Positions 7,819 to 13,285 of a DNA stretch of 64,000 nucleotides are shown piece by piece. Where the stretch lies: positions 1 through 64,000 of IMG/VR virus record IMGVR_UViG_3300021368_000003; one strand, 5' to 3'. The stretch comes from a virus. Each line of letters opens with the position of its first letter. Positions within the stretch are counted from its first letter, which is position 1. A program made the position numbers and the translations under genes. The notes below the pieces were generated by a model. That model did not search any database. It had not been told where the DNA came from and was given only the letters and a program-made list of their open reading frames with translations.

Positions 7819-8291
7819 GGTTTGCTAGCGATGTAGATCTTGTACGCATCAAAGGTAGAGATGCGTGTATCGTGCTTGTAGATGTCTGGCATAGCACGTA
7901 CAAAGGGTGTAGGACCCTTACCAGAGCGTCCTGTGGGGTCTGCGTTAGGAAGGATCTCCTTTGCACCTAGAAGGGTCTTGTGGCAGGTGTGGACCTTGCC
8001 GTAGCGTAGAGAATACTCCTCACATAGAGCAAAACCATGAGCAAGTAACCACTGCCAGTTGTTGACAAAAGAGTTTGCCCACACAGTGCAGGGGTGGTTG
8101 CGAAAGGCACCCTTCTCTGTGCTGTAAGGTTTACCATCAGCACGCAAAATGTCACCGAACCCATGACCCCACTTCTCGGATGCAACAATGGAAAGCATTT
8201 GACATGTCTCCAAGGGCATCTTTACGATGTGTTTGTCGGGGAGCACACGAGCGCACTCCCAAGGATCAGGACTGGTGACAAAGATGTTCAT
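7764..8291 (-). CDS. Conserved marine phage protein of unknown function
   Basis: The 175-residue protein begins MNIFVTSPDPWECARVLPDK and has the motif DKHIVKMPLETCQMLS, followed by conserved His, Trp and Asn positions (FRNHPCTVWANSFVNN). Proteins with an N-terminal DKH(I/V)VKM motif are common in marine phages and remain of unknown function to my knowledge. A distant likeness to pyrimidine-dimer excision proteins is possible; I cannot test it. It lies between the sliding clamp and clamp loader genes and shares one base with gp45. Confidence 0.78.
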   Translation of the reverse strand: MNIFVTSPDPWECARVLPDKHIVKMPLETCQMLSIVASEKWGHGFGDILRADGKPYSTEKGAFRNHPCTVWANSFVNNWQWLLAHGFALCEEYSLRYGKVHTCHKTLLGAKEILPNADPTGRSGKGPTPFVRAMPDIYKHDTRISTFDAYKIYIASKPWVRDNYLRIPDRRPHWV

Positions 8292-9028
8292 TAGTATTCA
8301 GAATCAGGTTCCAAGGCAACAAACAAGTCAAGTGAACGAACGTCATCTTCTGCACCTTTCTTGATGTTTGCTGTCAGTTTAGCAACCTTCTGAGAATAAA
8401 GCGACACATCGTATGATGCTACAACATTCGACACACGACCACTGCTGTTCACGATGCGAAGATTCTCAGTCTTGACACAGAAGCAGAACTCTTTCTCAGA
8501 TTCACCAAGGTCAACAGTGAAGACATTGCTAGCAGAGTTGCGTTTGTCAGTCACGATGGCATTCAGTTTACCTTCATGTGCAGTGAAGCAGATGTCAGGC
8601 AGACTATACGTCTGAGCAGCAGCAAACATCTTGGTGAAGTCAGCATAGTCAATGGTCACACGCTGAATAGGTTCGCCCAGGTTGGCGATGTTGTCAGGTG
8701 GAGCAGTGATCATGCTCTCGTTGGCATAGTAATACTTCATCTTACTACGTCCAGACCTGATGTTAACCAGGTTCTCTTGGAAATCAATGTCAGTACGATC
8801 AGGTTCACCGCCAGACACGATAGACATTGTGTTCAAGAACACATACAGGTCATAGATAGGTGCCTTGACAGGCATATCCAACTTACCAAATTCAACAACA
8901 CCCATGATGTTCTTGTTATTGGAGATAGTAGACACCCGTTTGCCTGGTTTGAACAGGATACTAGGGTTAATGTTCTTGAAAATGTTCAGAACTTCGTTCT
9001 CATTTTCAGTGATTTTCATACAAGTCAT
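8291..9028 (-). CDS. 45: Sliding clamp gp45
   Basis: gp45 forms the trimeric ring that holds the polymerase on DNA; with gp55 and gp33 it also activates late promoters. The 245-residue frame is close to T4 gp45 (228). It shows the N-terminal MKITENENEVLNIFKNINP segment and the domain pattern of the family. The first ATG (9028) overlaps the preceding stop as ATGA. The ATG at 9019 (MKITENE) is equally likely. It lies upstream of 44 and 62, as in T4. Confidence 0.93.
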   Translation of the reverse strand: MTCMKITENENEVLNIFKNINPSILFKPGKRVSTISNNKNIMGVVEFGKLDMPVKAPIYDLYVFLNTMSIVSGGEPDRTDIDFQENLVNIRSGRSKMKYYYANESMITAPPDNIANLGEPIQRVTIDYADFTKMFAAAQTYSLPDICFTAHEGKLNAIVTDKRNSASNVFTVDLGESEKEFCFCVKTENLRIVNSSGRVSNVVASYDVSLYSQKVAKLTANIKKGAEDDVRSLDLFVALEPDSEY

Positions 9029-9314: not shown

Positions 9315-9902
9315 TCAACAGAACCGTTCTAGTTGCGACGTATAGAGATCAGTGTTAGTTCCACCCGACAGATTGATGATTGAATCACGGACGAATGGGT
9401 TCTGAACATTGGACTGATCCCACCAGTGGATCACCTTACGGATGCCAGAGCGTACAGGTTTGACTCTGTGAATGACACCCGTGGGATACATGCAGGCATA
9501 ACCCGCTGGCAACTTAATACTAATACAAAAGTCGCCAAAACGCAAGTCTAGTTCGCCACCCTCATATTCATCTGGTTCAGACAAGAATAGAGTAGTAGAT
9601 ACATCCAATCGTAGACCGTCACTGCTTGTAACCTCATCAGAATGCCAATCATAACTATCAAGTTTAGAGTATTCTTTATATGTAAACCCTGTTCTAGCAT
9701 TGGAAAGGGTAATTGCTTCATGGTCAGACTTGTCAATCTCTTGGTCTAACCACTCAGCATAGAATGCACCGTAGTCCATTCCCCACCCTTTAATCTCAGA
9801 GCATTGTTTGTTCCAGGTCTCTACTTTATTTTGACCAGGACGACCATAAGAGAGGGCATGTTGAATGCCCTCCCCATCAAGGATCTTTGTGCGATACAGC
9901 AT
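9315..9902 (-). CDS. 2OG/Fe(II) oxygenase, prolyl-4-hydroxylase-like (PKHD type)
   Basis: The 195-residue protein has the facial triad of the superfamily: His87-x-Asp89 (DWHSDE), distal His145 (TGVIHRVKPV) and the 2-oxoglutarate-binding Arg155 (SGIRKVIHWW). It has the double-stranded beta-helix spacing expected (EGGELDLRFGD between them). The likely reaction is hydroxylation of a protein or small molecule. It is a second oxygenase, distinct from the one at 6090. It joins the CobS-like ATPase gene upstream with one shared base. Confidence 0.87.
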   Translation of the reverse strand: MLYRTKILDGEGIQHALSYGRPGQNKVETWNKQCSEIKGWGMDYGAFYAEWLDQEIDKSDHEAITLSNARTGFTYKEYSKLDSYDWHSDEVTSSDGLRLDVSTTLFLSEPDEYEGGELDLRFGDFCISIKLPAGYACMYPTGVIHRVKPVRSGIRKVIHWWDQSNVQNPFVRDSIINLSGGTNTDLYTSQLERFC

Positions 9903-10984
9903 CAGTCTTTCAGCAATTCGGACTCATCAAGTTCAATCTTAGCATCAATCTTGCTGTACAGTTCAAGGAAAGACTCCTTGGTTTCATCATCGAAACGGTT
10001 GAGGCAGAGTTTGATTGCCTTCACACGGTCGTTGAAGATAGCGAACGCACGAATGATGTGGACAAGACGACGAGTAGAGATCACTTCGTCAACACCACCA
10101 TCCTTGAAAGTCTTACGGATGATCTCTGCCCAGGTGCAGAGGTTCTGGATGTACTCCTCATCACAGCAGTTGAGTTCAGAGCAGTAGTTGTTGAGCATCT
10201 TCGCCTCAGTGGCAAGAGAAGGATAGTCCTGCTCGAAGGTGAGAGGGAAACGCTCCAAGAATGCTTCGTTGAGAACGTTGGTGCCGACGAAACGACCGTC
10301 CTCAGAACCCTTACCCTTGGTGTTTGCAGTAGCAATCACAGTGAAACCAGGTGCAGGGTTGACCTGCTGACCAGTCTTCTTCAAGAACACACCGTTGCCT
10401 TCAAGAATGGATTGGAGGCAGAGGATTTTGTTAGAAGCAAGGTCAATTTCGTCGAGTAGCAGGACTGCTCCCCTCTGGATCGCTTCAAGGACAGGTCCGT
10501 TATGCCAAACAGTGTTCCCATCCACAAGGCGAAACCCACCAATAAGATCGTCTTCATCAGTTTCAACAGTAATGTTTACACGAATAAGTTCACGGTTCAG
10601 TTGAGCACATGCTTGCTCGACTCCGAACGTTTTGCCGTTTCCAGAAAGTCCAGTAATAAAGATAGGGTAGAAGAGTTTGGACTTAACAATCCTCTTAACA
10701 TCTGCAAAGTTGCCAAAGGGTACATACTTGGAGTCCTTAGAAGGTACAAGGTTCTTGACAGCAGTCATGGTCTGGAAAGTCTGTTCGAGTTTTTCAGCAA
10801 CAGTCAGGTTCCACTTGCCAATACCTGCTTTGTAATCTTTCAGACGCTTCTTCACAGTCGCCATGCTGCAACCGAAGTGATCAGCGGCGGTGAGAAGTTG
10901 AGCGTTACCGACCTGTTCTCCATGAGCGCCAGAGAGAAATTCAACGATTTGTTCAGTGGTGACAGGATGAGGAGCGAAGGTCAT
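9902..10984 (-). CDS. cobS: CobS-like/MoxR-type AAA+ ATPase
   Basis: The 360-residue protein has a small N-terminal helical domain (DHFGCSMATVKKRLKDY, possibly a helix-turn-helix), then an AAA+ core. Walker A is GLSGNGKTFG near residues 112-120, and Walker B is VLLLDEIDLASN near residues 174-185. A sensor-like TANTKGKG and arginine region follow. Cyanophage homologues are commonly named cobS, after the cobaltochelatase subunit. The next gene upstream encodes a VWA-domain protein, and this pairing is that of MoxR-VWA chaperone pairs as well as of CobS-CobT. No CobN-like subunit is seen here. I am sure of the ATPase class, less of a role in cobalamin synthesis. Confidence 0.88.
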   Translation of the reverse strand: MTFAPHPVTTEQIVEFLSGAHGEQVGNAQLLTAADHFGCSMATVKKRLKDYKAGIGKWNLTVAEKLEQTFQTMTAVKNLVPSKDSKYVPFGNFADVKRIVKSKLFYPIFITGLSGNGKTFGVEQACAQLNRELIRVNITVETDEDDLIGGFRLVDGNTVWHNGPVLEAIQRGAVLLLDEIDLASNKILCLQSILEGNGVFLKKTGQQVNPAPGFTVIATANTKGKGSEDGRFVGTNVLNEAFLERFPLTFEQDYPSLATEAKMLNNYCSELNCCDEEYIQNLCTWAEIIRKTFKDGGVDEVISTRRLVHIIRAFAIFNDRVKAIKLCLNRFDDETKESFLELYSKIDAKIELDESELLKD

Positions 10985-11003
10985 GTTTGTTTGTTTGTTT
11001 GTT
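10985..11003 (-). repeat. Tetranucleotide repeat leader (AAAC units) before the CobS-like gene
   Basis: On the minus strand four AAAC units and a partial one end directly at the ATG of the CobS-like gene. There is no Shine-Dalgarno in this leader. It is a short tandem repeat in an otherwise non-repetitive intergenic region and could change length by slippage. Confidence 0.7.
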
Positions 11004-11022
11004 ATGTAATAATGATACCAAG

Positions 11023-11044
11023 AAAAAAACCCCCTGTAAGGGGG
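11023..11044 (-). terminator. Intrinsic terminator after the VWA gene
   Basis: On the minus strand a CCCCC/GGGGG stem with a five-base loop is followed by seven T. It lies 10 bases after the VWA gene stop and before the CobS-like gene, so part of the transcripts end here. Confidence 0.85.
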
Positions 11045-11053
11045 TAGTGGACA

Positions 11054-13228
11054 CTATGCGATCTGTCCCACAAAGGATGAAAGCATGATCCTGTTGATGC
11101 CCTTGGACTTCAAGGACTTAACGAATGCAGACTTGATCTGAGACTTGGTTGCGTTCTCCACAACAGTCATCTCTGTGTCCTCAGAAGCACCACCAGCGAT
11201 CACATAGAGTTCACTGTAAGAAGTACCCTTGATCACAGCAGACTTTCTCTTCCTGAACTGCTTAGTAACCTTCTCACGATCTTCGTACCTAACGCCGAGG
11301 TGATACCTCATGTACTGCTCCAAGGCACGACCCTTACAGATTCTGAATCCAAGGATGTTGCTCTCAGGGTATACCTCCCTGAGGTTCTTGATGAGTTGGT
11401 TAGTTGCCTCAGACTGACTATCTGTGATAGCAGGGAAGTAACGACCCTGACGACGGATGACAACGTTAGGACTGTGGTAAGAAGGATAGACTCTGGCGTC
11501 ATCTTCGTACCTAGAAGTACGACCAGTTGCCATGGACTGTGACTCACCATCAGTCAAGATAAGTAGGTGACACTTCTCAACATTGTTCTGTGACTTCCAC
11601 TTACCAAGGAATGACTCCATGACAATCAGTGCATCATTCAGAGGAGTACCACCAAGACCCATGAACCTAGGAGGACGAGGTGTGAAGCAGAAAGACCTGC
11701 GATTACCGTAGTAGTAAGCAACACGGTAGAGATACTTGCAGTGCTGATTGAATACCTTCTGGTTCACAGTGCTGGTAAGAAGGTTGACAAGTTTGAAACG
11801 ATTGTCAATCCAGAGTTCACCTTCCTTGTTGCTAGACACAGGAGTGATCTCACCTGGTTGATCACCATTCAAGAGAGACATACCAGGATCACAGACGAAT
11901 GAATACACATCGAAAGGAATACCAACCTTCTTGCAGAACTGAGCGAGGTTGATGACCTGCTTCACAGTGTCAAACAATTCGTCACACATAGAACCAGACC
12001 AGTCAAGAAGGAATACAAGACCGTGATTCTTGCCGTCAGGAGTACGAGTAACCTTCTTGAAAAGATCTTCGTTGTACTTGTAGGTGTGCAACTTGGACAT
12101 ATCAAGAACACCAGTACGAGATGTAGTGGCACGAGCATGTGCAGTTGCAGACTTACGGCACTCAAACTCCTTGACAAGGTAGTTTACATCCTTAGAAGAC
12201 TTGGTGCAGAACTCAACGAAGTCAGAATCAACCTGAGTGAACGGATCAGTAGGATGATCCTCTGCTGGATACTGGTTTGCCCAGTCAGATACAGCGTCTT
12301 CCCATACAAGGTGAGCAGGAACTACGACTTTCTTATGGTTGATCTTCGGATAGGAAGCGTAAGTGATCTCGCCAGCATAAGTTGAAGACAGATCTTCTGC
12401 CTTTGAATCAAAAGAAGACTGAGTGCGAACCTCATCGATGGACGGGTCACCGTACATATCGTTCTTCTGGGTGCCGAAACCCTCTTCGTCTTCTTCGTCT
12501 TGATCTTCGTCTTGGTCTTTCTCATAGGATGGTGTTTCTAGGTCAGCGTCGTCTGACTTCTTAGCAGGACGATCCATAGGATCATCATCAGTAAACCAAG
12601 GACGTTCCTCGGACTGTTGCTCAGACTCATCTCCACCACCAGTAGCATTAGGTTTAACAGGAGCAGAGATCTTAGTTTCCTGCTTCTCTTGCTCTTCCTT
12701 CATGTACTCGTAAATAGCAACCGCAGCAGCAACTGCTTCCTCAAATGTTTCAGCAGCGCCCACAGCGTCTCTGAGAGGGGTCTCAGAGGATGCAAATGGC
12801 ATCATAGAATATGCGCCAATCTTGAAGTGGAGGTTGATACGATCGACCAGAGGGAGTAGTTCGAGATCTTCATCCTTGATAGAAAAGAAGTCATCCTGAT
12901 CAAGTTCTTCGTAACCCCTGAAAAAGTCTTTGGAAAGACCAGGGTACTTACGTTTCATAAGTTTCTCGATACGAGCATCCTCAGTCACATTGATGTATGA
13001 CTTAGGGCATCCACAATCTGAAAGATCGGTGTTCGGTGTGTAGAGGGCGTGTCCGACCTCATGACCGACGAGCAGGTTGTATACAGTATTACTTGCCTTA
13101 GACCACATAGGGAGTGTGAGCACACGCTTCTCCACGTTGAAGGAGGCAGTCTGAACTTGCTTGTGCTCAACCAAGAGGTTCTCTGTCGCGAGGAGGCGGG
13201 CAAGAGATCCTTTGATTTCAATGTTCAT
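11054..13228 (-). CDS. HExxH metallopeptidase-like and VWA domain protein (CobT-like partner)
   Basis: The 724-residue protein has three parts. The N-terminus has HEVGH at residues 56-60 followed by VTEDARIEKL near residue 81, the layout of a zinc peptidase with a distal Glu ligand. The middle (residues 190-280) is acidic and low-complexity. The C-terminus is a von Willebrand A domain with a MIDAS motif DWSGS at residues 409-413 and LILTDGES near residue 565. VWA proteins of this form work with MoxR/CobS-type ATPases, and such an ATPase is the next gene. The peptidase may be active or a structural relic. The substrate is unknown. It has terminators on both sides, so it is a transcription unit of its own. 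Confidence 0.87.
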   Translation of the reverse strand: MNIEIKGSLARLLATENLLVEHKQVQTASFNVEKRVLTLPMWSKASNTVYNLLVGHEVGHALYTPNTDLSDCGCPKSYINVTEDARIEKLMKRKYPGLSKDFFRGYEELDQDDFFSIKDEDLELLPLVDRINLHFKIGAYSMMPFASSETPLRDAVGAAETFEEAVAAAVAIYEYMKEEQEKQETKISAPVKPNATGGGDESEQQSEERPWFTDDDPMDRPAKKSDDADLETPSYEKDQDEDQDEEDEEGFGTQKNDMYGDPSIDEVRTQSSFDSKAEDLSSTYAGEITYASYPKINHKKVVVPAHLVWEDAVSDWANQYPAEDHPTDPFTQVDSDFVEFCTKSSKDVNYLVKEFECRKSATAHARATTSRTGVLDMSKLHTYKYNEDLFKKVTRTPDGKNHGLVFLLDWSGSMCDELFDTVKQVINLAQFCKKVGIPFDVYSFVCDPGMSLLNGDQPGEITPVSSNKEGELWIDNRFKLVNLLTSTVNQKVFNQHCKYLYRVAYYYGNRRSFCFTPRPPRFMGLGGTPLNDALIVMESFLGKWKSQNNVEKCHLLILTDGESQSMATGRTSRYEDDARVYPSYHSPNVVIRRQGRYFPAITDSQSEATNQLIKNLREVYPESNILGFRICKGRALEQYMRYHLGVRYEDREKVTKQFRKRKSAVIKGTSYSELYVIAGGASEDTEMTVVENATKSQIKSAFVKSLKSKGINRIMLSSFVGQIA

Positions 13229-13257: not shown

Positions 13258-13285
13258 AAAACCCTCTGGACCAAAATCCAGAGGG
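13258..13285 (-). terminator. Intrinsic terminator after speD
   Basis: On the minus strand a perfect 9-bp stem (CCCTCTGGA with TCCAGAGGG) with a six-base loop is followed by TTTT. It lies 16 bases after the speD stop and closes the 46/47/speD unit. Confidence 0.88.

What the first reader, a model, noticed from the sequence alone, without database searches (positions are those of the whole stretch)
9902..13228. CobS-like ATPase paired with an HExxH plus VWA protein
The large partner has both a VWA domain with a full MIDAS motif and an N-terminal HEVGH with a later conserved Glu. That differs from a simple cobaltochelatase subunit and fits a MoxR-VWA pair with an added peptidase. The common label cobS may hide a protein-remodelling or proteolysis system.
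Basis: partly seen in the sequence, partly recalled or inferred. Interest (0 to 1): 0.65.

Follow-up and report, generated by a model that had tools for sequence, protein, structure and literature searches.

The report
Phage ATPase–VWA pair with zinc-peptidase domain
A two-gene machine carried by almost all T4-like ocean phages and labelled as a vitamin B12 enzyme has an intact zinc-peptidase-like site that true B12 cobalt-inserting subunits have lost, so it more likely remodels or cuts a protein during phage replication than helps make B12.

Summary
Directly downstream, 9902-10984(-) is a MoxR-type AAA+ ATPase. Neither gene is new: they are PHROG_459 ('peptidase') and PHROG_249 ('porphyrin biosynthesis'), the cobT/cobS core pair of T4-like cyanophages. 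A 2021 paper calls the 'peptidase' label a mistake.

The HExxH/ED residues are invariant in 80 marine viral copies and kept in distant phages and phage-plasmids. They are absent at that site from all 51 alphaproteobacterial CobTs examined. The N-terminal domain model (pLDDT 90) has minigluzincin zinc peptidases as its best structural matches, though weak (E about 0.1). One correction: the domain is not an addition; it is homologous to CobT's own N-domain, where the motif has decayed.

Three bacterial genomes carrying relatives have no CobN, and the genes sit between gp46/47 and gp45/44. A cobaltochelatase role is therefore unlikely in general, but cannot be excluded in cyanobacteria. Peptidase activity and the substrate are unproven. 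New variant of a known kind.

The parts
11054..13228 (-). HExxH + VWA protein (viral CobT-like, PHROG_459 'peptidase'), 724 aa
   Evidence: ORF; PHROG_459 E 7.9e-250 over residues 2-724
12659..13228 (-). N-terminal gluzincin-like domain, residues 1-190
   Evidence: AF2 pLDDT 90.1, pTM 0.85; best PDB matches selecase, abylysin, jannalysin, ArdC, PprI/IrrE
13049..13063 (-). HEVGH motif (residues 56-60), on predicted helix 47-63
   Evidence: 80/80 identical for H56, E57, H60; helix
12965..12982 (-). E83-D84-A-R-I-E88, candidate third zinc ligand on predicted helix 76-94
   Evidence: E83, D84, R86, E88 80/80; E83 and D84 invariant in A6, which includes phage-plasmid types
12440..12667 (-). Acidic low-confidence linker (about residues 188-263) between N-domain and VWA part
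   Evidence: pLDDT < 50 at 188-263; unconserved
11540..12025 (-). VWA core with MIDAS D409-x-S411-x-S413, T528, D560 (residues 402-563)
   Evidence: Invariant MIDAS residues; fold matches NorD VWA 9qh6/9qhd
9902..10984 (-). MoxR-type AAA+ ATPase (cobS-like, PHROG_249), 360 aa
   Evidence: AAA_5 70.6 bits; PHROG_249 E 3.5e-131; Walker A/B and two conserved arginines (R245, R305) invariant across A4
9315..9902 (-). 2OG-Fe(II) oxygenase, overlaps the end of the ATPase gene by one base
   Evidence: Pfam 2OG-FeII_Oxy_3 E 4.4e-9; neighbour only
8291..9028 (-). gp45-like sliding clamp, conserved downstream neighbour
   Evidence: Homologue found downstream in 40 of 44 loci with room; clamp identity from annotated Pelagibacter phage Mosig
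13672..15390 (-). gp46-like recombination ATPase, conserved upstream neighbour
   Evidence: Homologue found upstream in 36 of 40 loci with room; identity from T4-like gene order and sequence (own knowledge)

Best explanation
The pair is a viral MoxR/VWA machine of the CobT superfamily whose N-terminal gluzincin-type zinc site is intact. Proposed mechanism: the AAA+ protein forms a hexameric ring. The VWA part docks on the ring as NorD does on NorQ and grips an acidic residue of a target protein through its MIDAS metal. ATP-driven movement pulls on the flexible acidic linker and brings the target to the N-terminal HExxH domain, which cleaves or otherwise remodels it during phage DNA replication. 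It is not primarily a cobaltochelatase. Shown here: the two genes, conserved motifs, predicted domain fold, homology to CobT, absence of the motif in cellular CobT, conserved replication-module neighbours, and carriage of relatives by bacteria without CobN. Inferred: hexamer, docking, linker stretching (from the NorQD cryo-EM study), zinc binding, proteolysis and the target.
For: HExxH and ED residues invariant in 80 sequences, including the Glu (E57) that a purely structural metal site would not need. Intact in Pelagibacter, Klebsiella, E. coli and Acinetobacter phage or plasmid copies, Vibrio ICP2, Cobavirinae, Gordonia and Pseudoalteromonas relatives, and in 20 copies found in genome assemblies. 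N-domain model pLDDT 90; first 11 PDB fold matches are all zincin-type proteins. Cellular CobTs, 51 of 51, lack it at that position, and in the tree all 24 cellular CobTs form one group, support 100/100. Hosts of phage-type copies without CobN: Kluyvera, Buttiauxella, Oxalobacter; E. coli control also negative. Gene order gp46-CobT-CobS-gp45 conserved; dnaE, DNA polymerase or primase neighbours in unrelated phages. NorQD cryo-EM mechanism: PMC13036017.
Against: No activity, zinc content or substrate is known. The best-studied relatives (CobT, NorD) insert metals rather than cut proteins. Cyanobacterial hosts do have CobN/ChlH-type proteins (two in the Prochlorococcus assembly), so a chelatase role is not excluded there.
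Confidence: 0.5

Rival explanations
1. Cobaltochelatase: the phage CobST pair hijacks host CobN to raise B12 and so nucleotide synthesis (proposal of Liu et al. 2021, PMC8651126).
For: Homology to CobS and, through intermediates, to CobT over its full length. Core gene pair of cyanophages whose hosts encode CobN-type proteins.
Against: The window proteins fail the curated CobS and CobT models (72 bits against 558; no CobT match). The HExxH/ED residues kept in viral proteins are gone in cellular CobT. Relatives occur in bacteria without CobN: Kluyvera, Buttiauxella, Oxalobacter. No CobN and no ribonucleotide reductase found in this 95-kb viral record, which may be a fragment.
Confidence: 0.18
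2. Metal-insertion chaperone like NorQD: the pair inserts or swaps a metal in a phage or host metalloenzyme, with HExxH as metal holder rather than protease.
For: VWA fold matches NorD; the known MoxR/VWA pairs NorQD and CobST act in metal insertion (PMC13036017). Two 2OG-Fe(II) oxygenases lie close by, one overlapping the ATPase gene.
Against: The general-base Glu E57 is as invariant as the ligands, which metal storage alone would not require. The oxygenase next to the ATPase in the window is not conserved at that place in relatives.
Confidence: 0.25
3. The HExxH site is a relic: it binds zinc structurally or nothing, and the pair is only a remodelling ATPase.
For: In cellular CobT and in the Caballeronia plasmid copy the domain persists without the motif, so the fold has a use apart from the motif.
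Against: Relic sites drift; this one is 80/80 at 40-45% overall identity and shared by phages of many host groups.
Confidence: 0.07

Closest known systems
PHROG_459 / PHROG_249 = cobT ('peptidase') / cobS core pair of T4-like cyanophages and pelagimyophages
   Same: Same family, same gene order, full-length match; 463 phage records hold a match to the partner protein.
   Different: Nothing substantial; the window pair is an ordinary member.
Cobaltochelatase subunits CobS/CobT (PDB 9uka and relatives)
   Same: AAA+ / VWA pair; same domain order N-domain, acidic linker, VWA; profile of viral types matches CobT over the full length (E 1.6e-56).
   Different: CobT lacks HExxH and the paired ED (H-D and E-Q type residues instead); the window protein itself matches no CobT model; cellular CobT is a separate group.
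NorQ/NorD (MoxR/VWA iron-insertion pair of nitric oxide reductase)
   Same: VWA with MIDAS, AAA+ partner, N-domain and long linker; VWA fold match E 3.8e-4.
   Different: Different target; an HExxH in NorD was not tested here.
Minigluzincins (selecase, abylysin, jannalysin) and ArdC, PprI/IrrE metallopeptidase-like domains
   Same: Best PDB fold matches of the N-terminal domain; HExxH plus a downstream Glu.
   Different: Those are not joined to a VWA domain or an AAA+ partner; similarity is weak (E about 0.1-0.7).

Membership tests
Cobaltochelatase CobT (TIGR01651, PF06213, PF11775) | Match above curated cut-off | tested here: not met
   No hit for the window protein; 5 of 10 relatives in A2 match TIGR01651 and PF06213
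Cobaltochelatase CobT (TIGR01651, PF06213, PF11775) | N-domain without HExxH, as in cellular CobT | tested here: not met
   0 of 51 cellular CobTs have HExxH at the site; window has HEVGH
Cobaltochelatase CobS (TIGR01650) | Match above curated cut-off | tested here: not met
   72.2 bits against 558.55
Cobaltochelatase complex | Works with CobN | tested here: inconclusive
   No CobN in this 95-kb record or in three bacterial genomes carrying relatives; host of this phage unknown
MoxR-type AAA+ / VWA pair | AAA+ with Walker A/B next to a VWA protein | tested here: met
   AAA_5 70.6 bits; adjacency 76/81
MoxR-type AAA+ / VWA pair | Complete MIDAS (DxSxS, T, D) | tested here: met
   D409, S411, S413, T528, D560 invariant; the Pfam VWA score alone is below cut-off (14 against 23.8)
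Gluzincin / minigluzincin metallopeptidase | HExxH plus downstream Glu ligand | tested here: met
   H56 E57 H60, E83 invariant
Gluzincin / minigluzincin metallopeptidase | Gluzincin fold around the motif | tested here: inconclusive
   First 11 PDB fold matches are zincin-type but weak, best E 0.11; ligand geometry not measured
Gluzincin / minigluzincin metallopeptidase | Zinc binding and peptide cleavage | not testable with these tools
   Needs purified protein
PHROG_459 and PHROG_249 | Full-length profile match | tested here: met
   E 7.9e-250 and 3.5e-131

The most novel reading that the evidence does not exclude
The 'cobST' pair of T4-like marine phages is an ATP-driven metalloprotease (AAA+ ring, MIDAS substrate grip, N-terminal gluzincin) acting in phage replication. 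The cellular cobaltochelatase subunit CobT would then be an offshoot of this peptidase family that lost its active site.
Probability: 0.3. Interest if true: 0.85.

Novelty: new variant of a known kind. Interest (0 to 1): 0.58.

Why it matters
cobS is cited as a signature auxiliary metabolic gene of ocean cyanophages and read as B12 boosting. If the pair is instead a protein-remodelling or cutting machine, that reading of viral metagenomes is wrong, and a core but unexplained gene pair of very abundant phages becomes testable by a single point mutation (E57). It would also suggest how a metal-chelatase subunit could arise from a peptidase, and would give MoxR/VWA machines a proteolytic member.

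Tried and rejected
Pfam and NCBIfam on the window protein alone gave almost nothing, so family placement came from relatives. PDB sequence search with the window protein found nothing real; the same with the N-domain profile. PADLOC: no defence-system match. Direct profile comparison of the T4-like clade with cellular CobT is not significant (7.9% probability); the link holds only through phage-plasmid intermediates, checked against 20 column shuffles (77 against at most 10.2). An earlier comparison shared sequences between the two alignments and was discarded as circular. Looking for HExxH in partners of cellular CbbQ/NorQ-like genes found no usable partner. Whether SAR11 lacks CobN was not tested: no named Pelagibacter genome was reachable. 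B12-dependent ribonucleotide reductase as motive: no RNR found in this record, but it may be a fragment. Staphylococcus and Lactobacillus phage 'cobS' hits had no ORF with HExxH or a DxSxS-type VWA motif beside them in the quick motif scan and were left aside. Toxin or effector role: nothing pointed to it.
Full report
1. What is there. On the minus strand, 13228→11054 encodes 724 aa and 10984→9902 encodes 360 aa. The window lies in a 95,399-base viral record of T4-like type: neighbours include gp44- and gp45-like, gp46/gp47-like, Dam, S-adenosylmethionine decarboxylase and two 2OG-Fe(II) oxygenases. The 360-aa protein is a MoxR-type AAA+ ATPase (AAA_5 70.6 bits; PDB hits Midasin, CobS, NorQ, CbbQ). 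The 724-aa protein is PHROG_459, named 'peptidase' (E 7.9e-250), and the ATPase is PHROG_249, 'porphyrin biosynthesis' (E 3.5e-131).

2. Is the motif more than chance? Expected HExxH count for this composition is 0.02. In 80 sequences (79 IMG/VR loci plus the window) H56, E57, H60, N80, E83, D84, R86 and E88 are identical in all, as are D409, W410, S411, G412, S413, T528 and D560 of the MIDAS, at about 40-45% overall identity. The ATPase gene follows on the same strand in 76 of 81 loci; in the five exceptions the contig ends within about 1.1 kb downstream of the partner gene.

3. Breadth. tblastn finds the partner in 463 phage records, mostly Synechococcus and Prochlorococcus phages, also Pelagibacter, Stenotrophomonas, Ochrobactrum and Pseudoalteromonas phages. 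Reading neighbours of ATPase or partner hits shows the same HExxH...ED...VWA design in Pelagibacter phage Mosig, Klebsiella phage p4727, an Acinetobacter plasmid, Vibrio phage ICP2, a Cobavirinae phage and Gordonia phage Harambe. HExxH...ED is also present in an E. coli plasmid copy that stops early and in a Pseudoalteromonas phage ORF without the VWA part. A Caballeronia plasmid copy has lost the motif. Twenty further copies in genome assemblies, many probably phage contigs in metagenome bins, carry it.

4. Relation to CobT. Phage-plasmid types match cellular CobT over 577 columns (E 3.3e-52) and solved CobT 9uka (E 1.6e-56 with the mixed profile). The T4-like clade matches phage-plasmid types in the VWA region (98.2%) and in the N-domain (score 77, E 3e-14, against at most 10.2 in 20 shuffles), but not CobT directly. 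So the window protein belongs to the CobT superfamily by intermediates, yet passes no curated CobT model. All 51 cellular CobTs from Alphaproteobacteria lack HExxH at the site; their residues read like RYHDDGLH and EQARVE. Magnetospirillum molischianum has both kinds. In a maximum-likelihood tree of 45 sequences the 24 cellular CobTs form one group with 100/100 support. The root is unknown and several branches are long, so direction (loss in CobT rather than gain in viruses) is inferred.

5. Fold. AlphaFold2 of the full protein gives pLDDT 73.7 with a disordered acidic linker at 188-263. Among its best PDB matches are NorD VWA domains (E 3.8e-4; rank 1 is a pilus adhesin). The N-domain alone (residues 1-190, 42 sequences) gives pLDDT 90.1 with HEVGH on helix 47-63 and E83/D84 on helix 76-94. 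Its first 11 PDB matches are all zincin-type proteins: M. jannaschii selecase, abylysin, jannalysin, ArdC, PprI. E-values are 0.1-0.7, so this is consistent but weak, and ligand geometry could not be measured.

6. Context. Of loci with enough flank, gp46 lies upstream in 36 of 40 and gp45 downstream in 40 of 44. In phage-plasmids the pair sits beside dnaE, in a Cobavirinae phage beside DNA polymerase and primase/helicase, in ICP2 near DNA polymerase genes. This points to replication, by association only.

7. Cobaltochelatase test. No CobN/ChlH family (PF02514) in the 95-kb record. It is also absent from the Kluyvera, Buttiauxella and Oxalobacter genomes that carry relatives of the pair, and from the Nonlabens assembly (L096), where the copy may be a phage contig; a Prochlorococcus assembly has two. 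E. coli in the control set is negative. As a side result, of 115 alphaproteobacterial genomes 85 have CobT and 47 CobN/ChlH, 45 both, so 40 have CobT without CobN; assemblies are unnamed and of unstated completeness. No ribonucleotide reductase was found in the record, which may be incomplete.

8. Literature. cobS is a core cyanophage gene (PMC3037559, PMC2984593). Pelagimyophages carry cobS and cobT (PMC7029224). Liu et al. [quoted passage not shown] PMC11288001 calls the phage function uncertain. In the openly licensed papers I could search I found no account of the conserved HExxH/ED site; subscription papers and preprints were not searched.

9. Verdict. The pair itself is well known; the new element is evidence that its zinc-peptidase-like site is intact, strictly conserved and separates it from true CobT. 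Activity and target are open.

Noticed in passing
window 13262-13285 and 11029-11045, minus strand: Terminator-like hairpins with T tails isolate the VWA gene: one between the S-adenosylmethionine decarboxylase gene and it (MFE -17.7, z -4.1), a weaker one between it and the ATPase gene (z -1.4).
   Followed up: partly
window 10823-10984, minus strand (ATPase residues 1-54): N-terminus of the ATPase looks like a helix-turn-helix (HTH_23 E 0.069; phrog_18890 E 0.016); the E. coli plasmid-type relative instead has a Cys/His zinc-finger-like N-terminus.
   Followed up: no
L129-L178 and 115 alphaproteobacterial genomes: Cellular CobT occurs without any CobN/ChlH family protein in 40 of 85 CobT-bearing genomes, and also in the control Caulobacter, so even cellular CobST may do something besides cobalt insertion.
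   Followed up: partly
L085 (E. coli plasmid NZ_CP029421) 2943-4352: The VWA gene copy stops at 470 codons, before the VWA domain, while the ATPase gene is intact.
   Followed up: no
L091 (Caballeronia plasmid pSBC1_4) 5917-7662: A mobile-element copy that has lost HExxH (HLAAGH) but keeps LEDLRVE and MIDAS; a natural case of motif decay outside cellular CobT.
   Followed up: no
L088, L094 (Staphylococcus and Lactobacillus phages): Herelleviridae carry a distant ATPase annotated 'porphyrin biosynthesis' or AAA ATPase without a recognisable HExxH/VWA partner in the flanks; the label is probably misleading there too.
   Followed up: no
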